Source of the DNA: Streptococcus parasuis
GTDB taxonomy: Bacteria; Bacillota; Bacilli; Lactobacillales; Streptococcaceae
DNA length: 64,000 bases
Assembly (NCBI RefSeq): GCF_021654455.1
Contig: NZ_AP024276.1
Span: 186,001-250,000 of the forward strand
Reading direction: 5' to 3'
The position numbers were made by a program, and so were the translations under genes. Within the stretch, counting starts at the first letter, position 1, and each line of letters starts with the position of its first letter. Shown here piece by piece: positions 2,955-14,461 of this stretch. Under the pieces are notes generated by a model, which was not told where the DNA came from, did no database searches, and was given only the letters and a program-made list of their open reading frames with translations.

Positions 2955-4718
2955 ATGTTTAAAAAGTTACAAAAAAAACATCCCCACCTTGTGGCAATTA
3001 GCCTATTTGTGGGCTTTTCTATTTTATTATTAGTTCCACATTTAGTGACTAAGGGGATGGTAACAGGAGCAGATTTGATTTTCCATTACAATCATTTTTA
3101 TGATGGAGCAATGCAACTGAAGGAGGGAAACTTCTCTTATATTATCAGTTTGTATGGCTATCAACAGTCTGGTCGAATTGTTAATGCTCTCTATGGCCCG
3201 TATTTTGCATACTTGCAAAGCGTCTTGGTATTGTTGAGTGGTACTTGGTACCGCTATCAGATTGTTTCTAATTTATTTTTGGGAACACTGAGCGCAACTT
3301 CTTTATATGTTCTCTTCCGCGAGGTTAAGGTCAAGTACTCACTCTCTCTTTTACTATCAATGTTTTTCGTGACAACTTATTCTATTCAATATTGGTGGGT
3401 ATCCCAAGGTTTCACTAGCTGGGGAGTGGCACTGTTTCCGCTTTGTCTTATTCCAGCAGTGCGTTTCTTGCAAACTAAGAAAGTTCCTATTTTCCTTATG
3501 GCAGGAGCAGTAGGATTGATGTTGCAGGTTCACATGTTGTCAACGTTATTCTTAGTTATTGCTTATGGAATCATCTTTCTTTTTGGTTGGTTAAAATCAG
3601 AACAAAAGTTTAAGATTGTTGGAGATGTTGCCAAATCAATACTTGTTTTCCTACTGCTAACAATGAATATTTGGTTACCACTCATTAATATTGAGGTGAC
3701 AAATACTTTGATACCCCCATTTGTGAATAAGAAGTTTGTATTATCAACAGTCACTCACCTCAAAATCCGATTCTTGTACTATCCGTATTCCTTGCCACTC
3801 TACTTTGGACTTTTTCTTTTCTTTTTGGTAAAAAATTGGAAAAAGCATTCTCGGGTTCTTGTAGGATTATCTATAACCTATACGATATATCTAATTTTAT
3901 CAACTAATCTATTTCCTTGGCAATTAGTAGCAGGGAAGGGAATTGCCATTATTGAGCTGATTCAATTTCCTTCTCGATTTTTCCTTTATGCTAATGTCTT
4001 TTTACTAGTTGTCGTTGGATTGCAAATAACACGCCTATCCGAGAAGTGGCAAAAAGTTTTTTCTAAGATAGTTTTAATGTCTCTTTTTATCGGAGTTGGG
4101 TTTATATGGTATCAAAATGGTAAAGACATCCAAGAGGACTACTATAGTGATACCTTTATGCAACACCGGATCTATACTTCCCTTTATGGTTCGGCTGATG
4201 AATTGCGTGATTCTCTCCATTCATCAGACTTGAGTGAATTTATTTATCTTGCTCAGAAATCAACTCCAGACTACTTACCAAATTTAGAAGAAAAATCCGG
4301 ACCTGCAACAAATGAAGAGACACGTAAGGCCTATCATGCTTACCATGACCAGATTATTCTTCCAAATAATAATTTTGAAAAGCAGGTTAAAGGGAATCAG
4401 TTAGTGATTACATGGACAGCAAAAGAAGCAGAAGAAACGGCGGTTCCGATTATTGTTTATCAAGATAGCCAGCTGGTCCTAAACCATCAAGTGTTAAATA
4501 GAGAAGATATGAAACTTTCCACTATCGGTGTTCCAACAGTCACAAGCCAAAAAGGGCAGAATACCCTTGTTTTGTCCTATAAGCAACAATGGTGGTTGTT
4601 ACCGGTGATTGCGATTAGCTTGATGGGGTGGGGATTATGGCTTTGTTATTATATGGCTTTCTATCGCAAATCAAAACTTTTAAAATTGAGAATATACAAT
4701 GAAACAAATCAATCCTAA
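2955..4718 (+). CDS. large polytopic membrane protein, function unknown
   Basis: I do not recognise a specific family with certainty. The 587-residue protein has a positively charged N terminus (MFKKLQKKHPH) followed by about ten hydrophobic segments, an extracytoplasmic loop containing GADLIFHYNHFYDGAMQLKEG just after the first one, a large hydrophilic domain near residues 395-545, and a final membrane segment with a basic tail. This plan resembles GT-C/YfhO-like membrane glycosyltransferases; the Asp in GADLIFHYN would fit the acidic residue such enzymes carry in the first loop, but that is inference. ATG 2955 has GAAGG upstream and is preferred to TTG 2901. It overlaps the downstream LTA-synthase-like gene by 20 bases, so the two were probably co-expressed in envelope biogenesis. 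Confidence 0.7.
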   Translation: MFKKLQKKHPHLVAISLFVGFSILLLVPHLVTKGMVTGADLIFHYNHFYDGAMQLKEGNFSYIISLYGYQQSGRIVNALYGPYFAYLQSVLVLLSGTWYRYQIVSNLFLGTLSATSLYVLFREVKVKYSLSLLLSMFFVTTYSIQYWWVSQGFTSWGVALFPLCLIPAVRFLQTKKVPIFLMAGAVGLMLQVHMLSTLFLVIAYGIIFLFGWLKSEQKFKIVGDVAKSILVFLLLTMNIWLPLINIEVTNTLIPPFVNKKFVLSTVTHLKIRFLYYPYSLPLYFGLFLFFLVKNWKKHSRVLVGLSITYTIYLILSTNLFPWQLVAGKGIAIIELIQFPSRFFLYANVFLLVVVGLQITRLSEKWQKVFSKIVLMSLFIGVGFIWYQNGKDIQEDYYSDTFMQHRIYTSLYGSADELRDSLHSSDLSEFIYLAQKSTPDYLPNLEEKSGPATNEETRKAYHAYHDQIILPNNNFEKQVKGNQLVITWTAKEAEETAVPIIVYQDSQLVLNHQVLNREDMKLSTIGVPTVTSQKGQNTLVLSYKQQWWLLPVIAISLMGWGLWLCYYMAFYRKSKLLKLRIYNETNQS

Positions 4719-7144
4719 AGTAAGTAAGCAATTTGTCCTTGTCATGGTGATGACTGTGATTCTAGCAATGGGGCGTGCTCTGCTACTGAGTGGTATGGCT
4801 TATCCAATATGGTTTATTCCTTTATCGATAATAGCCTATCTCATCTTTACTTTTTATATTTTGGTCTTATTAGAAAAATATGAAGAGTTTATCAGAACTA
4901 AAACGTTTGCAAAATATGTTGGTTATTTTCTAGGCTTTCTCTACCTTGTTACGTTAGTCTATCGGCTCAATGCTAAGAAGTTTCAACCCTGGAATATTTT
5001 TCGGAACAATCTTTTTCAAATTGAGCTGCTTTTGATGCTGGCATTACCAATTATTTTGGCTCTTTTCTTACATAAGAATAGAGTGGTTCGTGAAAGGCTT
5101 CGTTCTTGGTCGACAAAGCATTTGGTACCCGATGTTTATTTATTATTAACGACTTTGTTCTCACTTAGTCCATTAGCAATTTCATATTGGAAAGATAGCC
5201 ATTATGAGAGTTTAATTGAAAATGGTTCTTATACGGAATTTTTCAGCCAGACTCCCATTTTTGCGACCATACATTTTGTGGCAATGTATTGGTTTCTACG
5301 CTATCTTTACAAATGTTTTAATGAGTTTAAAGCAAATCGGACCAATGTGCACAGTATGCTTTTCATTAGTTTAGCCTTGGCAACCATTTCGCATATTGGT
5401 TATCAAGCATCTATGGCAGGCGGCACAGGTTCTTATTTTACTAGGCACCTTTTCCCAGGGGCGATTGTTTTTCAAATTGCGTGTCTCTTTTTCTTAAATG
5501 TGATAATCAGTTTGGTCATCAATCGACAAATTTTATCAGTTGCATTAATCGCCTGTTTGAATGTAACTTTGATAACAGCTAATTTTCTTAAGTTCCGTTA
5601 TCGTTCAGAGCCATTGACTCCAAATGATTTCAAGTGGATTGGGAACATTGGGATGATTTTTAGTTTTATTAGCGTGAGAGTGGTACTCGTTACGCTTCTA
5701 TTCTTGGTTATTCTGATTTTTATTTATCGCCGTTTTCGTACTCGTTATTTTTTAGGGGCAATTGTTCAATCCTTTTGGAAGCGACTCGTCGGAATTTCTG
5801 TCATTGTCTCTTTGATTGTTGGAATGGGATGGGCGATTCGTAATGAGAAAGATCACAAGATTGTTGGTTGGATTCCAATTCTTTCTCAGGTTAACAATTG
5901 GCGGAATGTTGACTGGAAAGGCTATGCTTTTGTGGCACGTTACCGTACAATTATCCTTTCTCTGGTTACAACAGCTTAGCAAGACAAGTATGGAGGAACC
6001 TCAAGATTACGCCGAGAAAACAATGAAGGCCATAGTTAAAAAATATACAGAGTTAGCTGAGGAGATTAATGTAGAACGGGCAGGTCAGCTAACAGATCAA
6101 ACGGTTATTTATCTATTGAGTGAAAGTTTTGCGGATCCTCGTCGTGTTCCGGGAGTGACGATCAGTCAAAATGTAATACCTAATATTGAATACATTATGA
6201 GTCAAACAACAAGTGGTTTGATGAAGAGCGATCATTATGGTGGTGGGATGGCTAATATTGAATTCCAAGTATACAGTGGCTTGCCTTTCTACAATTACAA
6301 TTCCTCTATTTCATCGGTCTATTTGGATGTAGCACCGAATATGAAGAAATTTCCAAGTATCAGTGACTTATATGATGAAAGTAATCGGGTCGCTATTCAT
6401 CCATACTACGATACCAGTTACAACCGTAATACTATTTATAAACAGTTGGGGATTGATCGGTTCTATACCTTGAATAGTTCACAGTATCCGATAACTGTAG
6501 CGGATACAGATTACCAAGGGAATTTTGTTAGTGATCGAAAGACTTATGATTTGATATTGGATCAGGTTCGTTCTACTGACAATAAATTTGTGTCAGCCAT
6601 TACCATGCAGAACCATGTGCAGTGGAATTCTTCAGAGCCTGCTACAATTACAGCAACTGGTCAAGGTTTTACGGCTGAGGAGAATGAAAACCTAAATAGC
6701 TATGTTCGTCTCTTATCCTTTACGGATCAGGCAACAAGGGATTTTCTAGACCAGCTTAAGACCTTGGATAAGAAAGTGACAGTTGTTTTTTACGGTGACC
6801 ACCTACCAGGTTTGTATCCAGAGTCCGCTTTCGTGACGGACCCAAGCGCGCAGTACAAGACAGATTATTTCGTGTGGAGTAATTTTGAAACAGAAGACTA
6901 CCATTATGATTTGGTCAATTCTAGCGATATGAATGCTCTTATGCTGGAGACGACCAATAACAAGGTCAGTCCTTACTATGCTCTCTTGACGGAAGTGCTC
7001 CACAAGGATCGAGTGGGTCAGGCAGAACGCGACGCAACAGTTGCAGAAGTGCTCAAACTGGTCCAATATGACCTATCTACAGGAAAAGGCTACCTTTTGA
7101 AATACAAAGACTTTTTCAAAGTAGCGACTGAAACGACAGAATAA
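4699..7144 (+). pseudogene. LTA synthase-like phosphoglycerol transferase, frameshifted
   Basis: The intact gene would encode about 815 residues: an N-terminal membrane region and an extracellular sulfatase/alkaline-phosphatase-fold domain of the LtaS/MdoB family, which transfers phosphoglycerol to envelope polymers. The 5' part (4699-5979) ends prematurely at YRTIILSLVTTA. The rest continues in the next frame (LSFLWLQQLSKTSMEEPQ) to 7144, so one base appears gained between about 5945 and 5970. The catalytic domain keeps LLSESFADPRRVPGV and FYGDHLPGLYP. At the nucleophile position, where relatives have GGGTAN, this sequence has GGGMAN (about 6240-6260), so the catalytic Thr looks lost as well. 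Both lesions point to a dead gene, unless the frameshift is a sequencing error. Confidence 0.75.
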
Positions 7145-7151
7145 AAATAGG

Positions 7152-7193
7152 ACCAAGTCAGATAGCTGTCAAATAGTTGGCTTGGTTTTCTTT
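7152..7193 (+). terminator. terminator after the LTA-synthase-like gene
   Basis: ACCAAGTCA at 7152-7160 pairs with TGGCTTGGT at 7178-7186 (one G-U pair) and is followed by TTTCTTT. It lies eight bases after the stop codon. Confidence 0.65.
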
Positions 7194-7243
7194 ATGTGAA
7201 AAAGGACACAAACATGGCGAGTTGTGGTATAATAACGGTGTTT

Positions 7244-7451
7244 ATACTCTTCAAAAATCAAAATTATCCGTTGTCAAGAGTCTTGATGAATGAAAAACTT
7301 CAGTGGAGCTTTTCAGCCTGTTACCTTAAAATAAGAAAGTAACAGTGTTCTATCGTCGGCTTGAAGACGCAAACATTGTTTTCTGTATTTTCCACCTTCA
7401 ACTATCTTCCAGATAGTTGAAGGTGGTCTACTTTTGATTTTCGTTGAGTAT
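7244..7451. repeat. BOX-like streptococcal intergenic repeat
   Basis: A 208-bp element with inverted ends: ATACTCTTCAAAAATCAAAA on the left, and CTTTTGATTTTCGTTGAGTAT on the right, which as its complement reads ATACTCAACGAAAATC. These ends match the general form of pneumococcal BOX elements (boxA start and boxC end). Inside is a perfect 16-bp hairpin (7392-7407 with 7411-7426, CCACCTTCAACTATCT arm). Its right end is only two bases beyond the stop codon of the pheromone gene on the minus strand, so it may serve as that gene's transcript end. Related pieces lie near 2.6, 36.3, 59 and 61.7 kb. Confidence 0.65.
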
Positions 7452-7453
7452 TA

Positions 7454-7549
7454 TTATTTTATAACAATGATTGGTGGAATGTCTTTTAGGATACTAATAA
7501 GTAAAATTAAAACGATAGTGATGTTTGCAATTAGATAATTTTGTTTCAT
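7454..7549 (-). CDS. shp: SHP-type short hydrophobic pheromone precursor
   Basis: A 31-codon gene too short for ordinary ORF calling. It has the architecture of SHP quorum-sensing precursors: a polar N terminus (MKQNYLIANI), a strongly hydrophobic middle (VLILLISIL), then an acidic residue followed by hydrophobic residues at the C terminus (DIPPIIVIK), which would be the mature pheromone. It is divergent from the adjacent rgg gene, the standard shp-rgg arrangement. A GGGGA ribosome site lies seven bases before the ATG. Known SHPs are exported by PptAB, cleaved, re-imported by the Ami/Opp permease and bound by Rgg. TATAAGGGA lies exactly 88 nt upstream of the ATG, as it does for the precursor-peptide gene. 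The identification rests on form and position; the exact processed peptide is inferred. Confidence 0.78.
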   Translation of the reverse strand: MKQNYLIANITIVLILLISILKDIPPIIVIK

Positions 7550-7628
7550 TGATATTCCCCATTGTTGAATATAGATAATATTTATTTTAAAATCATGATA
7601 ACATCTATTAAGTTATGCTTTAAACAAA

Positions 7629-7637
7629 TCCCTTATA
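7629..7637 (-). promoter_or_regulatory. candidate Rgg/SHP box upstream of shp
   Basis: On the minus strand this reads TATAAGGGA. Its first base is 88 nt before the first base of the shp start codon. An identical 9-mer sits 88 nt before the precursor-peptide ATG at 8617. It lies 20 bases upstream of the rgg start, so occupancy could also affect rgg. Binding by Rgg is inference. Confidence 0.5.
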
Positions 7638-7656
7638 TATAAAAGGAGGTCTGGGT

Positions 7657-8520
7657 ATGAGTTGTTTTGGGAAAACGTTGAAATTTATCAGAGAGGGAAA
7701 GGGGAAGAGTCTGGCGGAGGTCGCCAAGGGACATATTTCTACTTCTCAACTTTCTCGGTTTGAAAATGGGGAATCCGACATTACTGTTAGTAAATTATTT
7801 GGTGTACTGGCGGAAATGAATGTGGATGTAGACGAGTTCGTGTACGCCAGTCAGGATTTCAAAAAAGATGAACTGACTAGACTTTTGGAACAAATCAAAG
7901 AATCGCTATATATTGGAAAAGTAGCGAAATTAAAACAACTGTTGTCAGAACAAATGAGAAAATCTCAGGGGGGAGAACGGGAGGAGTTTCATCGGTTGAA
8001 TGCTATTTTAATCGCTTATAAACTGAGAAACTTAGATAAGACAGTAGTTGTTTCGAAAGAAGATACAGCCTTTTTAACGGATTACTTATTTCGAGTTGAG
8101 AATTGGAGCTACTATGAAATCTTACTATTTGCGAATACGATTGACAAATTGGGTCATCAAACAATGATGCTTTTTTGTAGAGAGTTAATCCATCGTACAC
8201 AGTTTTACCGTGAAATGAAACAACATCGATTGGTAGTTTCTCAAGTTCTCCTTAGTGCTTATCTAGTCAGCGTTCAAACTAAGGAACTTGTCGACGCAAT
8301 CTTTCTCGAAAAGACTATCGAAGGTTTGCTTTTCGACGAGACAGAAATTTTTGAACGCATTTTGTTTAAATTTGGTAAGGCTTTTTATGATTATCAAAAT
8401 ACCGGAACCTCTAATGCTATTTTGGATATGAGAAAGTGTATTGGACTTTTACGAGCGGTTGATAGCCAGAATATAGCAGATTGGTATGAAAGTATATTGG
8501 AAAAGATACTTATTGAGTAG
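7657..8520 (+). CDS. rgg: Rgg family transcriptional regulator
   Basis: A 287-residue regulator with an N-terminal XRE-type helix-turn-helix (residues about 5-60, SLAEVAKGHISTSQLSRFENGESDI) and a long alpha-helical C-terminal domain of the Rgg/TPR type that binds short hydrophobic peptides. Length and layout are normal for streptococcal Rgg. It has a strong ribosome site (AAAAGGAGGT) before ATG 7657. It is divergent from the shp gene and immediately precedes the RiPP precursor, so it most likely is the peptide-controlled activator (or repressor) of both. No C-terminal truncation is visible. Confidence 0.93.
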   Translation: MSCFGKTLKFIREGKGKSLAEVAKGHISTSQLSRFENGESDITVSKLFGVLAEMNVDVDEFVYASQDFKKDELTRLLEQIKESLYIGKVAKLKQLLSEQMRKSQGGEREEFHRLNAILIAYKLRNLDKTVVVSKEDTAFLTDYLFRVENWSYYEILLFANTIDKLGHQTMMLFCRELIHRTQFYREMKQHRLVVSQVLLSAYLVSVQTKELVDAIFLEKTIEGLLFDETEIFERILFKFGKAFYDYQNTGTSNAILDMRKCIGLLRAVDSQNIADWYESILEKILIE

Positions 8521-8528
8521 TGGTTGCG

Positions 8529-8564
8529 TATAAGGGACATATTTTGTTGTCCTATATTTATAAT
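8529..8564 (+). promoter_or_regulatory. promoter/operator region of the RiPP precursor gene
   Basis: TATAAGGGA (8529-8537) starts 88 nt before the ATG, the same distance as in front of shp. It overlaps the imperfect palindrome GGACATATTTTGTTGTCC (8535-8552; arms GGACA and TGTCC). A TATAAT -10 hexamer follows at 8559-8564, with no good -35, as expected for an activated promoter. The palindrome could instead be a weak rgg terminator. Confidence 0.5.
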
Positions 8565-8616
8565 TTATTATTAATAATGCGTAAATTTATTTATTGGACA
8601 AGAAAAGGAGAAGAAT

Positions 8617-8730
8617 ATGTCTGTAATTGAATTTAAAAAGTTGTCTTCAAAATTATTAAAAGTAAGTAAAATTGAAACCCTCAGTGGATGTGGAACAAAA
8701 AGAACACAGCAAACAAAAGGATGGTATTAA
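8617..8730 (+). CDS. tqqA: RiPP precursor peptide, TQQ-type (RaS-RiPP)
   Basis: A 37-residue peptide. The leader is MSVIEFKKLSSKLLKVSKIE, then TLSG, and the likely core is CGTKRTQQTKGWY. AAAAGGAG lies seven bases before the ATG. It sits between rgg and a radical SAM/SPASM gene, the layout of Rgg-controlled streptococcal RaS-RiPP clusters. The TQQ motif matches the subfamily that, as I recall, is named TQQ and in which the enzyme forms an ether link between a Thr side-chain oxygen and the alpha carbon of Gln. Whether the single Cys or the terminal Trp-Tyr is modified cannot be told. The gene is too short for ordinary ORF calling. Identification of the subfamily is from the motif only. Confidence 0.8.
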   Translation: MSVIEFKKLSSKLLKVSKIETLSGCGTKRTQQTKGWY

Positions 8731-8888
8731 TTTTTGGTTTTTCGATTGGTAAAATTAGTCTAGTTGACAGAGATTTTTTATATTATTATCGCTACAAGTT
8801 TCGTTGATTAAACTTATTGTATTTTAAAAACATAATAGTGTATTGATTCCATTAAATAAATTTACGTATTTTTAAGGAGAATATGATA

Positions 8889-10130
8889 ATGAAATTTATG
8901 CTAAATTGTGATTACTACTACCATTATTTTGGTGAAGATTTGATGGTTATAGGAAAATACGGTCAATACTTATTAAATGAATATCAAGCGTTAGTTTTAA
9001 AACAGATAAACGAAACGGGTAGTGTAGAAAGTTTGATAGGTTACTTCTCTGATATAGCGGGGGAATGTGAAACAAAAATAAAAAAGCTATTATTGGATAC
9101 ATTAAAATTATTCTTGGAGAAAGAGTTTATTGTTAAAGGAGTTTCTGCTTATCCGAAGCATATTTATGGTGAAGTTGGGAAATTTTACCCTAGGAAAATA
9201 GTTATAGAATTAACGAATAAATGTCATTTACAGTGTATACACTGTTTTAAGGAAGCTGGACCAATTAACAGGAATTTTTTGAAATATGAAGAGCTAATAA
9301 ATTTTTTAGATAGGGTAAAAGGAAAGGTTTATGAAATACAGTTAACGGGTGGGGAGCCGATGGCACATCCTCATTTTAAAGAGATTTCAAAATATGTTAC
9401 GGAAAACTTTCAAGAAGTAACAATGACAACCACTGGTCATTTAATTAATTCCAAAAGTATAATTTATTTGAAGGGAATGAGCTACATTCAAATTTCTTTA
9501 TATCATCATAATCCGATTCTAAACGACCAAATTACCAATGGAAAGGATACATTAAATAAAACGATTAGAGGAATAAGATTTCTAAACAATGAGAATTTAG
9601 ACTATTCAGTGACCAATATTGTCCGAAACAGTCTTATAGATGAATTTGATAATTTTATAGAATTTTTAATGCTAAACCAAGTAAAAGCGGTGAGATTTGG
9701 GCTATTTAGTCATTTGGGTAGAGGTAAGTTAGTCGGATCAGATTGGTTTTTAAGTCCCGCTAAAGTAGAAGAATTTTATGAGATGCTTATAGAAAAAAGT
9801 AGAGAGTATAGGAGCAGAATTAATATACATACATGGGAAGAAGATAATTGCTTTAACTATTTTGAAGACATTGTAGATGGTACAATGCGTTGCGGAGCAG
9901 GTGTTATTGAATGGACAATCAATGAGAGTGGCCATATTAAGCCGTGTACATTCTTTCCGGATGGTGAGTTTTCTTCTTACTCTCTTCAAAATTTTGAAGA
10001 ATATTCAATGCAAAATCACGAACAGAATATTGTAAAGAAAATAAATGATTGGGAAGGTTTGCTCCAGACGGTTGGGTTGTCAACTAGAAATATTTGCGAA
10101 GAAATCTATAAAATGGTGGAAAAGAAATGA
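8889..10130 (+). CDS. tqqB: radical SAM/SPASM peptide-modifying enzyme (TqqB-like)
   Basis: A 413-residue enzyme expected to cross-link the adjacent precursor peptide. The radical SAM cluster motif is CHLQCIHC (CX3CX2C) near residue 112, followed by the LTGGEP SAM-binding segment. The C-terminal part has further cysteines (MRCGAGVIEW, IKPCTFFP, NICEEIY), as in SPASM/Twitch domains holding auxiliary Fe-S clusters. The first about 90 residues resemble a RiPP-recognition (PqqD-like) domain. AAGGAG at 8874-8879 is nine bases before ATG 8889 but only three before ATG 8883, so I prefer 8889. Codon use is more AT-rich than in neighbouring housekeeping genes, consistent with transfer. The stop overlaps the next start (ATGA). 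Confidence 0.88.
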   Translation: MKFMLNCDYYYHYFGEDLMVIGKYGQYLLNEYQALVLKQINETGSVESLIGYFSDIAGECETKIKKLLLDTLKLFLEKEFIVKGVSAYPKHIYGEVGKFYPRKIVIELTNKCHLQCIHCFKEAGPINRNFLKYEELINFLDRVKGKVYEIQLTGGEPMAHPHFKEISKYVTENFQEVTMTTTGHLINSKSIIYLKGMSYIQISLYHHNPILNDQITNGKDTLNKTIRGIRFLNNENLDYSVTNIVRNSLIDEFDNFIEFLMLNQVKAVRFGLFSHLGRGKLVGSDWFLSPAKVEEFYEMLIEKSREYRSRINIHTWEEDNCFNYFEDIVDGTMRCGAGVIEWTINESGHIKPCTFFPDGEFSSYSLQNFEEYSMQNHEQNIVKKINDWEGLLQTVGLSTRNICEEIYKMVEKK

Positions 10131-11704
10131 AAAAGAGGAATTTTTGGCTAACCTTATCTTGTATTTTTACAGTAGCCCTGCTCAATGTTGGCTTTCTGTA
10201 CCAATATCGCTATATTATTGATGCTATTGCGGCTGGAGATAGACAGGCCTTTGTGTCTTATTTTGTGCTGATGGGGCTAACTGTCCTTGTCATGCTGGTC
10301 TTTGAATACATTCGTCAGATTGCCAATGTCAGCTATCTCAATCAAGTAGGTTTCCAATTGCAGGCGACCTTTATTGGGAAAATTTTTGATTTGCCTTTTA
10401 GAGAGTTCGTTGAGCAGGGGGCAGGGGCCTATATTTCTCAGCTCAATAATGATTTGGAGACGGTGAAAGAAGATTATTACGACGCCTTTTTTACGATTTT
10501 TCAAGGTGCTTGTACCTTTGGCATTGCCAGTTTGGCCCTTCTTAGCTTGGATGGTCTGACCGCTATTTTCTTAATTTTGATTTCATTCTTGCCAGTTGTG
10601 ATTCCCTATTTGTTTAAAAAGCGGAGAAGGCTCAATCAGGAGGCGATTTCGGACAGTCAGCAGGTCTATAATACAAGGGTTTCAGATGTCTTTCTAGGTT
10701 ATTTGCAAGTGAAAAATAGCCGCCAAAGACAGCAGGTTTTAGATGAGCTGAATGATCGCTATCAAGCAGTCAATGACAAGGTTGATCAGGCCAATCGAAC
10801 GACAGTAACCATGCGGCTCTTAGTCGGTTTCGTCTTTTATCTGACCACTCTTTCGATTATCTTTATCGGTGGTTTTCAAGTCTTTTCTGGCGCCTTGACC
10901 ATCGGTGGCTTGACAGCTATTCTGACCATTTCAGAGCAGTTGGTGGATCCCATTAATAGCATTGCGGCAGCCTTTTTGGACAGGCATGCCGTTAAGGAAT
11001 TGAAGCAAGAGTTTGAGCTATCTACTTTGGGGCAAGAAACGAAGGGACAGGAACTAGCTTCAGCTTTCCAGAGCATGCAACTGGTCAAGGCTAGTTATGC
11101 CATCGGTGAGAAGCAGGTCTTTGAAGACCTGACAGTAGCGTTTGAACGTGGCAAGAAGTATTTAATTCTTGGGGAAAGTGGTTCTGGCAAATCTTCCTTG
11201 GCTCTTATTTTGACCAAGAATAGCCAACTGCAAGCAGGGGATATTTACTTTGATAAAACCTCTCTTTCAGACTTATCCTACCAAGCCATTCAAGACAAGA
11301 TTGCTTATCTGCCACAAGAGGGATCCCTTTTCCATGATACGGTTCTTTACAACTTGACCATGGGACGGGAGGTTTCAGAAGATAGGATGATGTCCCTCAT
11401 TAAAACCATGAACCTTGACAGTCGTTTTCCAAGTTATGCTTCTTTGAGCGAGGAAATCAGTGATAATAGCGGACTGTCTGGCGGACAAAAGCAACGCCTG
11501 CTCTTGATTCGTGCCTTGCTGCAAGATAAGGACATCTTGTTGCTGGATGAAAGTCTGTCTGCCTTGGATCAGGAAACCTATACAGTAATTGAAGCCTACC
11601 TTACCTCACTAGCAGATAAGACGCTCATTCATATTTCCCACCGTGTGTCCGATGAGGTCCTTTCTCGTTATGATGAGGTGGTACGGATTGGGGAGAGCAA
11701 TTAA
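10127..11704 (+). CDS. ABC exporter, fused membrane and ATPase domains
   Basis: A 525-residue half-transporter, probably exporting the modified peptide. The N-terminal half has six membrane segments. The ATPase half shows Walker A GESGSGKSS, Q-loop YLPQEGSLF, signature LSGGQKQR, Walker B ILLLDESLSALD (Ser in place of the usual Pro after the catalytic Glu) and H-loop HISHR. There is no C39 peptidase domain, so leader cleavage must be done by another protein. It overlaps the radical SAM gene by four bases, indicating translational coupling. It probably pairs with the next ABC protein as a heterodimer. Confidence 0.88.
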   Translation: MKKRNFWLTLSCIFTVALLNVGFLYQYRYIIDAIAAGDRQAFVSYFVLMGLTVLVMLVFEYIRQIANVSYLNQVGFQLQATFIGKIFDLPFREFVEQGAGAYISQLNNDLETVKEDYYDAFFTIFQGACTFGIASLALLSLDGLTAIFLILISFLPVVIPYLFKKRRRLNQEAISDSQQVYNTRVSDVFLGYLQVKNSRQRQQVLDELNDRYQAVNDKVDQANRTTVTMRLLVGFVFYLTTLSIIFIGGFQVFSGALTIGGLTAILTISEQLVDPINSIAAAFLDRHAVKELKQEFELSTLGQETKGQELASAFQSMQLVKASYAIGEKQVFEDLTVAFERGKKYLILGESGSGKSSLALILTKNSQLQAGDIYFDKTSLSDLSYQAIQDKIAYLPQEGSLFHDTVLYNLTMGREVSEDRMMSLIKTMNLDSRFPSYASLSEEISDNSGLSGGQKQRLLLIRALLQDKDILLLDESLSALDQETYTVIEAYLTSLADKTLIHISHRVSDEVLSRYDEVVRIGESN

Positions 11705-11737
11705 TTTTTGTCAGATTGTTCCTATCTAGGAGGAGTT

Positions 11738-13329
11738 ATGAAAAAATTGTCTATCAATTGCGATTTGTTATTGCCATTCAGTTGGTTTTCCATATCTTAT
11801 ATAGTTTGACAAATGTCGTTTTGCCGGAGTTAAATAAGTATCTTTTTGACCATATTTTTCAGATGGGCTGGATAGGACTTGTCTGGCTCTTGTTGGCCTA
11901 CGCTTTGACCATCATTGCCAATTCAGTTTTTCAGTACATTTCCCAGGTTTATGAGTGGAAGGTGTCTCAGGGCTTCTATGTCACGGCTAAAAAAGGTCTG
12001 GCAAACAGCTTGTTATCACAGCCTTTATCCAAATTTTCAGAGAAGAATGTTTCTGCCTATCTGTCCATTTTTGACAATGATTTGGAAACCATTGAGGAGA
12101 GTTATCTGAGTCCTCTCATGGACATTATCCGCTCTAGTTCGAGCATGATTATCTATGCATTTTCTCTCTTTCTCTTTGTTCATCCGCTGGTTGCGGTTGG
12201 GATTATTCTGTTGTCTGCCTTGGCGGTCTTCATTCCCAAGTGGATTTCTGGCCCCCTTTCTCAGCGGCAGCGGGCATTTTTACAGAGTTTGGAAAGTTAT
12301 TTTCAGGTGGTGACTGACCTCTTTTCTGCCAAGAATCGTGTCAATACCGAAACTTTCGGCTCCATCAGCCGTGTCCACCATCGGTCAGTAGAAGAAAGTG
12401 AGCAGGCTCGTTTTCACTTTGGGCAATTCAAAACCCTGGCCAATGTTGTCAATGGATTTTCCATGTTTTTGGTGCAATTAACGGCTTTTGGCTTGGTCGG
12501 CTACCTCTTGCTACAAAAAGAGGTGACCATCGGTGCAGCCATTGCGACCTTTAGCTATGTTGAAAATTTCATCTATCCTATGAAATACATCCTCTTGGAT
12601 GTCAATTATATCCATTCGACCAAGGAAACAGTTGCCAACTTAGAAGGTTATCTTGCTGGTCAGGTCTTGTCTGAGCAAGTGCCAAGCTATCCCAATGTGA
12701 CAGCCTTAGAAGTCAGGGATGTGGCCTATCATGTGGGAGAATTAGCGGTCGCAGATTTTTCCTATCGGTTTGACAAGGGGAAAAAGTATGCCATCATTGG
12801 TCCGTCAGCCAGCGGAAAATCCACTTTTCTACGAGTGTTGGCAGGAGAACTAGCTCTGGACAAGGGAAGTGTTTCCTATTTGGAACATGATGTTTTGCAT
12901 GAAATGGAAGCAGCTACTGCCTTCTATCTCAGCCAGTTTGAGCATCTTTATCATACTGATTTTGAAAGCAATGTGTCTGTCTTTGGAACCTATGATAAGG
13001 GAAGAGATGCCATGCTTGGCTTGTTAAGGAGCTTGCCAACGAGTTTACAGGACACTTTGATGACCACAAGCGATCCTAGTCAGTTGAGTGGTGGCGAGAA
13101 AAACATCCTGTGTCTGCTCCGTGCCCTGATGAGTGGTAAGGATGTCTTGCTCTTGGATGAACCGACCGCTCATTTAGACCCTGCCCTGACCAAACAGGTT
13201 TTGACCAACCTCTTGCAGTTGGAGGACAAACTTATCATTACTATCTTGCACCAATCAGACCCAGCTATCCTAGACTTGTTTGATGTGGTTTTGGAAATGC
13301 GTGATGGGAAATTGAGTGAAAAGATATAA
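11738..13329 (+). CDS. second ABC exporter subunit, frameshift at start codon
   Basis: About 530 residues with six membrane segments and an ATPase domain: Walker A GPSASGKST, signature LSGGEKN, Walker B VLLLDEPTAHLD, H-loop LHQS. The best start is ATG 11738 after AGGAGG (11728-11733), but ATG then A6 then TTGTCT leads out of frame and stops after 23 codons. One more A, or a -1 slip on the two Lys codons, would give MKKIVYQLRF and join the long frame. Without that, initiation must use TTG 11716, which lies before the ribosome site and has a poor one of its own, or a rare codon downstream. The gene may be off, slippage-dependent, or affected by a homopolymer sequencing error. The downstream reading frame is intact. 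Confidence 0.75.
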
Positions 13330-13379: not shown

Positions 13380-13461
13380 TGCGGAGGAAGGGATTTGAAC
13401 CCTCACACCCGATGGGCACATGCGCCTGAAGCATGCGTGTCTGCCGTTCCACCACCTCCGC
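13380..13461 (-). tRNA. tRNA-Leu (anticodon CAG)
   Basis: On the minus strand the gene begins GCGGAGGTGGTGGAACGGC and closes with CCTCCGC pairing the acceptor stem. It has a long variable arm typical of class II tRNA. The anticodon stem-loop is CATGC-TTCAGGC-GCATG, giving anticodon CAG (Leu, codon CTG). The T-arm GGGTTCAAATCCC is canonical, the discriminator is A, and CCA is not encoded. Confidence 0.95.
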
Positions 13462-13585: not shown

Positions 13586-14461
13586 TTGCAAGGAAGAATT
13601 ATCAAGGCCTTGGCTGGTTTTTACTATGTCGAGGCAGATGGACAGATTTATCAAACCAGAGCCAGAGGAAATTTTCGTAAGAAAGGCCAAACGCCCTATG
13701 TGGGTGATTTTGTGGATTTTTCTGCGGAGGAAAACTCAGAAGGCTATATTTTAAAAATCCATGAGAGGAAAAATAGTCTAGTTCGACCTCCTATCGTCAA
13801 TATCGATCAGGCGGTAGTTATCATGTCGGCCAAGGAGCCTGATTTTAATGCTAATTTACTTGATCGTTTCCTAGTACTTTTAGAACAAAAGGATATGGAT
13901 CCCATTATCTATATCTCTAAGATGGACTTGGTAGAAGATCGGACGGAAATTGATGCCTTCAAGGCTATCTATGAGAAAATTGGCTATCCTTTTGTCTATA
14001 GTTTGGAGGAATTGACGCCATTATTGCAGGATAAGGTGACGGTCTTTATGGGGCAGACAGGGGTTGGCAAATCGACTCTTCTCAATCGCATTGCACCAGA
14101 ATTAGCCTTGGAAACAGGGGCGATTTCAGATAGTCTGGGGCGTGGTCGCCATACCACTCGTGCGGTCAGTTTCTACAATGTCTTCGGTGGGAAAATTGCG
14201 GATACGCCAGGTTTCTCATCTCTAGACTATGAAGTCAAGGAGGCTGAGGCACTGACAGATTGTTTCCCAGAGATTGCGGAAGCCAGCCAGAACTGCAAAT
14301 TTAGGACCTGTACCCACACCCATGAGCCGGATTGTGCAGTCAAAGAAGCTGTTGCCAGCTCTGCCATTTCCCAAAGTCGCTTTGACAATTATCTCCAATT
14401 CCTCAGCGAAATCCAAAATCAGCGTGAAACCTATGCCAAGGTAAGTAAGAAATTCAAATAG
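13586..14461 (+). CDS. rsgA: ribosome small subunit-dependent GTPase RsgA
   Basis: Circularly permuted GTPase that assists late 30S maturation. The 291-residue protein has an N-terminal OB-fold, G4 YISKMD, G1 [12 protein letters not shown] (after G4, showing the permutation), G3 [10 protein letters not shown], and a C-terminal zinc site [14 protein letters not shown]. The start is TTG 13586, six bases after AAAGGAG; no upstream ATG exists in frame. A TATAAT -10 lies near 13551. It heads a tight operon with rpe, thiN, rmuC, yhaM and a phosphotransferase. Confidence 0.96.

What the first reader, a model, noticed from the sequence alone, without database searches (positions are those of the whole stretch)
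7454..13329. Complete pheromone-controlled RaS-RiPP locus (TQQ-like)
Seen: shp-like gene, rgg, 37-codon precursor with TKRTQQTKGWY, radical SAM/SPASM enzyme with CX3CX2C and extra cysteines, and two ABC exporters, in one block more AT-rich than its neighbours. Known: Rgg-regulated streptococcal RaS-RiPP clusters exist, and a TQQ subfamily forming a Thr-Gln ether has been described. Inference: this is a member, with an additional Cys and a C-terminal Trp-Tyr in the core whose fate is open.
Basis: partly seen in the sequence, partly recalled or inferred. Interest (0 to 1): 0.85.

Follow-up and report, generated by a model that had tools for sequence, protein, structure and literature searches.

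The report
Threoglucin (TQQ peptide) gene cluster
This is the known Streptococcus suis gene cluster for threoglucin, a small cross-linked growth-slowing peptide switched on by a pheromone; the new part is that most related genomes examined have deleted the peptide-making genes but kept the export pump, which suggests that the pump may also protect its owner.

Summary
The precursor scores 88.8 bits against NCBIfam NF050041.1 "TQQ cross-linked RaS-RiPP peptide" (cut-off 50). Threoglucins of S. suis are published (review PMC13361665, passages), so the system is already known.

Corrections: only shp-rgg-tqqA-tqqB is AT-rich (GC 0.317; exporters 0.435). The second exporter is probably a resident neighbour of rsgA. 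The core Cys is conserved in the other precursors found, not additional.

The unexpected part is comparative. Of 15 S. suis-complex genomes with this site, 2 hold tqqA-tqqB; 6 lack them but keep rgg; 7 lack rgg too. In all 13 losers the last 10-13 codons of tqqB remain in frame directly before the first exporter, so these are deletions. That exporter is intact in 14 of 15 and evolves under constraint (mean dN/dS 0.12-0.14 in non-producers). Another species lost tqqB separately and kept its exporter; S. sciuri lost both. Best reading: the known threoglucin locus, whose exporter probably also gives immunity (untested).

The parts
7225..7233 (+). extended -10 element TGGTATAAT; in relatives that lost genes the same motif lies 56-72 nt before the first retained gene
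   Evidence: motif match only, 6 such matches on the + strand of the whole window
7454..7549 (-). shp: 31-aa pheromone precursor candidate
   Evidence: ORF; identical in G246 and G253
7657..8520 (+). rgg: pheromone receptor and transcription activator
   Evidence: PF21259, TIGR01716; at least 84% identical in 8 of 284 Streptococcus genomes including the window
8617..8730 (+). tqqA: threoglucin precursor, core region SGCGTKRTQQTKGWY
   Evidence: NF050041.1, 88.8 bits; 100% identical in G246
8883..10130 (+). tqqB: radical SAM maturase, ether-forming by family
   Evidence: PF04055; model pLDDT 83.1, best fold matches SkfB and SuiB
10127..11704 (+). abc1: ABC exporter that follows tqqB (start codon overlaps the tqqB stop); candidate immunity pump
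   Evidence: PF00664, PF00005; 17 of 284 genomes; also next to tqqB or tqqA in G009, G084 and G389
11716..13329 (+). abc2: second ABC exporter ORF, probably a resident of the rsgA neighbourhood; start region out of frame here

Best explanation
This is the threoglucin (TQQ, rotapeptide) locus of the Streptococcus suis complex. Inferred working, after the published TQQ and Rgg/SHP systems: the SHP peptide is exported, trimmed and re-imported and activates Rgg; Rgg turns on shp and the tqqA-tqqB-abc1 operon; [quoted passage not shown] a protease encoded elsewhere removes the leader; abc1 exports the product. Shown here: gene content, family membership of the precursor, fold of the enzyme, synteny, and the repeated deletion of tqqB with abc1 kept. 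Not shown: the chemistry, pheromone response, transport and any immunity. That abc1 is also an immunity pump is my added inference, scored apart in the section on the most novel reading.
For: Precursor passes the curated TQQ model and is identical to the copy in G246. tqqA-like, tqqB and abc1 homologues are adjacent at other sites: G009 (59% TqqB, 54% abc1) and the Atopobacter genome G389 (42% and 42%). Fold of the TqqB model: SkfB TM 0.69, SuiB 0.55-0.59. Divergent shp/rgg with a 107-bp shared intergenic region, the layout the review gives for Group I/II systems. The tqqB stop overlaps the abc1 start, so co-translation is plausible.
Against: No chemistry or expression was tested. Pfam and NCBIfam have no TqqB-specific model that fired: the best NCBIfam hits for the enzyme are other maturases far below their cut-offs. 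A shared Rgg box between the shp and tqqA promoters was not significant (48 of 300 shuffles as good). The primary threoglucin papers could not be read.
Confidence: 0.88

Rival explanations
1. The retained exporters carry another substrate (another peptide, a lipid or a drug) and were never specific to threoglucin; tqqA-tqqB came and went upstream of a generally useful transporter pair.
For: The exporters have the base composition of the genome, unlike tqqB; abc2 stands without tqq genes by rsgA in G009; both exporters are kept in 10 non-producers with abc2 intact in 9 of the 13 plus constraint on both.
Against: abc1 homologues of 42-55% identity lie directly behind tqqB or tqqA in three other genomes (G009, G084, G389), and the remnant of tqqB still abuts abc1 in the 13 non-producers. 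In G009 tqqB is also more AT-rich than its exporter (0.305 against 0.387), so composition does not prove separate origin.
Confidence: 0.3
2. The exporters are simply decaying slowly after recent deletions and have no present function in non-producers.
For: dN/dS of the exporters in non-producers (0.11-0.14) is above that of rsgA (0.05); abc1 is in pieces in G251 and abc2 is broken or absent in 3 of 13 non-producers; in S. sciuri (G196) both tqqB and the exporter have decayed. Part of the measured divergence may predate the deletions.
Against: abc1 is an intact ORF in 12 of 13 non-producers despite mean pairwise dS of 0.16-0.24; a TGnTATAAT element lies shortly upstream of the first retained gene in 12 of 13.
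Confidence: 0.25
3. It is some other radical SAM peptide system that only resembles TQQ.
For: The enzyme's best NCBIfam hits are mycofactocin and other maturases (below cut-off), and the nearest solved structure is a sactipeptide maturase, SkfB.
Against: The precursor passes the curated TQQ model, and SGCGT(K/R)RT(Q/H)QTK is conserved in G009, G084 and G196.
Confidence: 0.03

Closest known systems
Threoglucin / rotapeptide (TQQ) cluster of Streptococcus suis (Clark et al. 2019; Covington and Seyedsayamdost; seen only as described and cited in PMC13361665, not held)
   Same: Species complex, TQQ precursor family, radical SAM maturase, Rgg/SHP control, C-terminal Tyr
   Different: Nothing tested here distinguishes it; the published precursor letters could not be compared because the papers are not held
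   Same: 37-aa ORF with NCGTKRT, then a TqqB-like gene (42%), then an abc1-like gene (42%)
   Different: TKN in place of TQQ; no match to rgg or shp at E 0.001 in the 15-kb stretch
SkfB (sactipeptide maturase, PDB 6efn) and SuiB (streptide maturase of S. suis, PDB 5v1q)
   Same: Overall fold (TM 0.69 and 0.55-0.59); CX3CX2C
   Different: 15-19% identity; other cross-links

Membership tests
TQQ RaS-RiPP (threoglucin/rotapeptide) | Precursor of the TQQ family | tested here: met
   NF050041.1 88.8 bits, cut-off 50
TQQ RaS-RiPP (threoglucin/rotapeptide) | Radical SAM maturase next to the precursor | tested here: met
   PF04055 59.9 bits, cut-off 29.5; CX3CX2C
TQQ RaS-RiPP (threoglucin/rotapeptide) | Thr-O to Gln-C-alpha ether | not testable with these tools
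   Needs mass spectrometry and NMR; bond known from the review passages only
Rgg/SHP-controlled RaS-RiPP | shp divergent from rgg with a shared intergenic region, upstream of the RiPP genes | tested here: met
   7454-7549 minus, 7657-8520 plus; layout as in the review
Rgg/SHP-controlled RaS-RiPP | Rgg operator shared by the shp and tqqA promoters | tested here: inconclusive
   Best shared 16-mer 13 of 16; 48 of 300 shuffles as good
SPASM-domain radical SAM enzymes | Full seven-cysteine SPASM motif (definition recalled) | tested here: not met
   Only C337, C355 and C405 are conserved behind the core; no Pfam SPASM hit. Twitch-like single auxiliary cluster inferred
TQQ transport genes | Both exporters travel with tqqB | tested here: not met
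   abc1 does; abc2 is absent from the tqqB-bearing G246 and stands apart from tqq in G009

The most novel reading that the evidence does not exclude
Most genomes of the S. suis complex that hold this site are former threoglucin producers: they deleted the precursor and maturase but keep the exporter as an immunity pump. Some also keep the pheromone receptor (one, G253, the pheromone as well), so that they could sense producers; in others the pump now follows an upstream extended -10 promoter. The first exporter would then be the immunity factor of this RaS-RiPP.
Probability: 0.4. Interest if true: 0.55.

Novelty: already known. Interest (0 to 1): 0.38.

Why it matters
The cluster itself is a published kind. 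The useful addition is a natural experiment: at least three separate deletions (one junction shared by six genomes, one by seven, one in G084) remove tqqB and leave the exporter. That points to a testable immunity gene for a narrow-spectrum, growth-arresting peptide and suggests populations made of producers, silent responders and immune non-producers.

Tried and rejected
Genome-collection scan with TqqB: 23 stretches matched a pattern, none encodes a relative; the one further scan, with abc1, gave nine Streptococcus contigs and four unrelated ones. Precursor hit in G074 (20.9 bits, below cut-off): rejected as chance, lying in another gene (gene name pepT recalled). Shared shp/tqqA promoter box: no better than shuffles. 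That the exporter-only loci are the ancestral empty site: rejected, because the sequence before abc1 there still reads as the TqqB C-terminus in frame. That both exporters belong to the TQQ unit: not supported. Six distant TqqB-profile hits in other genera (E 1e-47 to 1e-51) were not followed up.

Names: nine G handles were matched to named contigs by equal contig length; G196 as S. sciuri and G389 as Atopobacter sp. AH10 in the same way. That G246 (1,980,887 bases) is S. suis S735 is recalled, not tested.

Rows dropped before counts: G251 abc1 (partial); G251 and G259 abc2 (stop inside); G246 and G254 have no abc2; G262 and G251 rsgA and G256 rpe (cut by the end of the fetched stretch). In one search I hid rows below 45% identity, below 70% and below 60%. 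P0009 (S. sciuri, truncated) was left out of alignment A1: 9 of the 10 proteins were used with the window's. Pairs behind the dN/dS means are not independent.

Full report
What is there. Reading the window gives shp (minus, 7454-7549), rgg (7657-8520), a 37-codon precursor (8617-8730), a radical SAM gene (8883-10130) whose stop overlaps the start of the first ABC exporter, abc1 (10127-11704), and a second exporter ORF, abc2 (11716-13329), followed by a tRNA-Leu (13380-13461, minus) and rsgA (13586-14461; name from sequence, recalled). The window lies in a 2,197,342-base genome. The precursor passes NCBIfam NF050041.1 "TQQ cross-linked RaS-RiPP peptide" (88.8 bits, cut-off 50). rgg has the Rgg C-terminal domain and tqqB the radical SAM domain.

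Composition. Only shp to tqqB (7454-10126) is AT-rich: GC 0.317 against 0.435 for the exporters and 0.441 for rsgA. In G009 tqqB is likewise more AT-rich than its exporter (0.305 against 0.387), so composition alone does not show separate origins.

What the family says. The published TQQ product is threoglucin of S. suis. I saw passages of the review PMC13361665; three papers I asked for, among them the TqqB and threoglucin papers, are not held. [quoted passage not shown] suis at 500 nM and do not appear to affect other streptococci, and that four variants have a hydroxylated C-terminal Tyr. A second review (PMC10221674, two passages) reports a bacteriostatic effect detected only for S. suis. 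The window's precursor ends in Trp-Tyr. Precursors of G009, G084 and G196 share SGCGT(K/R)RT(Q/H)QTK but end differently, so the Cys is conserved and the C-terminus varies. In G389 a 37-aa ORF with NCGTKRTKNTK precedes a TqqB-like and an abc1-like gene; that it is a precursor is inference.

The enzyme. The window's TqqB and nine relatives share CX3CX2C; of three auxiliary cysteines C337 is in 10 of 10 and C355 and C405 in 9 of 10 (the tenth is truncated). The predicted structure (mean pLDDT 83.1; residues 277-281 and 320-339 below 50) best matches SkfB (TM 0.69) and S. suis SuiB (0.55-0.59). Its first 86 residues are predicted as four strands, three helices and a strand, which suggests a RiPP recognition element; I did not test this separately.

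Distribution. TqqB matched 4 of 284 Streptococcus genomes at E 1e-20 or better, one of them (G196) with stops inside. The precursor family matched 6 of 284, 5 of them over cut-off; I judge the sixth chance. abc1 matched 17 of 284 at E 1e-120 or better, and I fetched all 17 loci. Two (G009, G084) are at other sites with 54-55% identity; the other 15, including the window, lie between the same lipoteichoic-acid-synthase-like gene (here called ltaS; label recalled) and rsgA.

Three states of one site. State A, shp-rgg-tqqA-tqqB-abc1: window and G246, 2 of 15. State B, rgg and abc1 without tqqA or tqqB: G253, G255, G262, G251 (abc1 in pieces), G256 and G254, 6 of 15; shp is kept only in G253. State C, abc1 and abc2 without rgg: G050, G064, G250, G057, G259 (abc2 with a stop), G260 and G243, 7 of 15. 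Nine of these genomes match named contigs by length, eight recorded as S. suis and one as a Streptococcus MAG. None of the 13 shows tqqA or tqqB elsewhere at the thresholds.

The scar. The window's TqqB ends NICEEIYKMVEKK* across the abc1 start. Directly before abc1, in the same frame, the six state B loci read NVC(L/S)E(I/F)Y and on to the stop, and the seven state C loci read (C/Y)(L/E)EIY and on to the stop, except G259 with AIY: 13 of 13. Identity over the last 33 nt is 23-31 of 33. Over the first 28 nt of the 42-nt tail, chosen to leave out most of the ribosome-binding site, the 13 loci score 18-22; of 395,714 positions in the same loci 36 reach 18 or more, these 13 included, and none but these reach 20. 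The state C loci, at 18-19 in six of seven, are the weaker case on this measure alone. Other TqqBs end in a similar way. So the losers descend from tqqB-bearing loci. The B loci share one junction and the C loci another, hence at least two deletions, though junctions may also have spread by recombination. G084 shows a third: tqqA intact, then a tail reading GLSTKNICEEIDKVVGVQDEK*, then an intact exporter. Against the pattern, in G196 (S. sciuri) tqqB and the exporter have both decayed while the tqqA ORF is left.

Why keep the exporter? abc1 is intact in 14 of 15. abc2 is an open frame with its start in 10 of 15: absent in G246 and G254, broken in G251 and G259, start out of frame in the window. 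rgg is in 8 of 15 and tqqAB in 2 of 15. Mean dN/dS (Nei-Gojobori): abc1 0.139 in B (5 genomes, 10 pairs) and 0.122 in C (7 genomes, 21 pairs); abc2 0.118 (4 genomes) and 0.114 (6 genomes); rgg in B 0.177 (6 genomes); rsgA 0.050 and 0.054. So there is constraint, weaker than in the neighbouring core genes, and some of it may predate the deletions. A TGnTATAAT element lies 56-57 nt before rgg in 5 of 6 B loci and 71-72 nt before abc1 in 7 of 7 C loci; in the window it lies at 7225, beyond shp. I read this as retention of a useful pump, most simply immunity to threoglucin. That is inference; another substrate or a lag in decay remains possible.

Movement of the block. Between the window and G246, dS is 0 in tqqA, 0.036 in tqqB, 0.150 in rgg, 0.130 in abc1, 0.284 in rsgA, 0.299 in rpe and 1.07 in ltaS. 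In 150-nt windows, identity from 7440 to 10139 is 96.7-100% except within rgg (7740-8114, 74-96%), and in abc1 91-99%. States A, B and C are interleaved in the trees of abc1, abc2, ltaS and rsgA. So the shp-tqqB block has probably been exchanged recently by recombination.

abc2. In G009 abc2 (64%) stands by rsgA on another contig than tqqA-tqqB-abc1, so it is probably a resident of the rsgA neighbourhood. G283 has rgg (56%) and abc2 (69%) around a decayed stretch that resembles a PqqD-type domain (label recalled).

Verdict. The finding is real and rightly named but already known. What I add is the retention of the exporter after repeated loss of the maturase. I saw no mention of it in the listings of eight paper searches or in the passages read; that library lacks the primary papers, so this is no proof that it is unpublished.

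Noticed in passing
window 7244-7451: MITE-like element with 23-nt imperfect terminal inverted repeats and an internal 16-bp terminator-like hairpin. In G246 and G254, which lack abc2, a similar terminus directly follows the abc1 stop.
   Followed up: partly
window 4699-7144: The lipoteichoic-acid-synthase-like gene reads as two overlapping ORFs in different frames here, while G246 has one ORF of 814 aa. It is also very divergent from the other 14 genomes (dS 0.84 or more).
   Followed up: no
window 7740-8114: A stretch within rgg is only 74-96% identical to G246 although both sides are about 97-99% identical: a recombination mosaic inside the pheromone receptor gene.
   Followed up: no
L100 6055-9406 (G389): TQQ-like three-gene set outside Streptococcus with TKN in place of TQQ in the candidate precursor.
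   Followed up: partly
L059 about 5073-8067 (G283): rgg (56%) and abc2 (69%) at the rsgA site flank a decayed stretch resembling a PqqD-type domain (label recalled), perhaps another lost RiPP system.
   Followed up: no
   Followed up: partly
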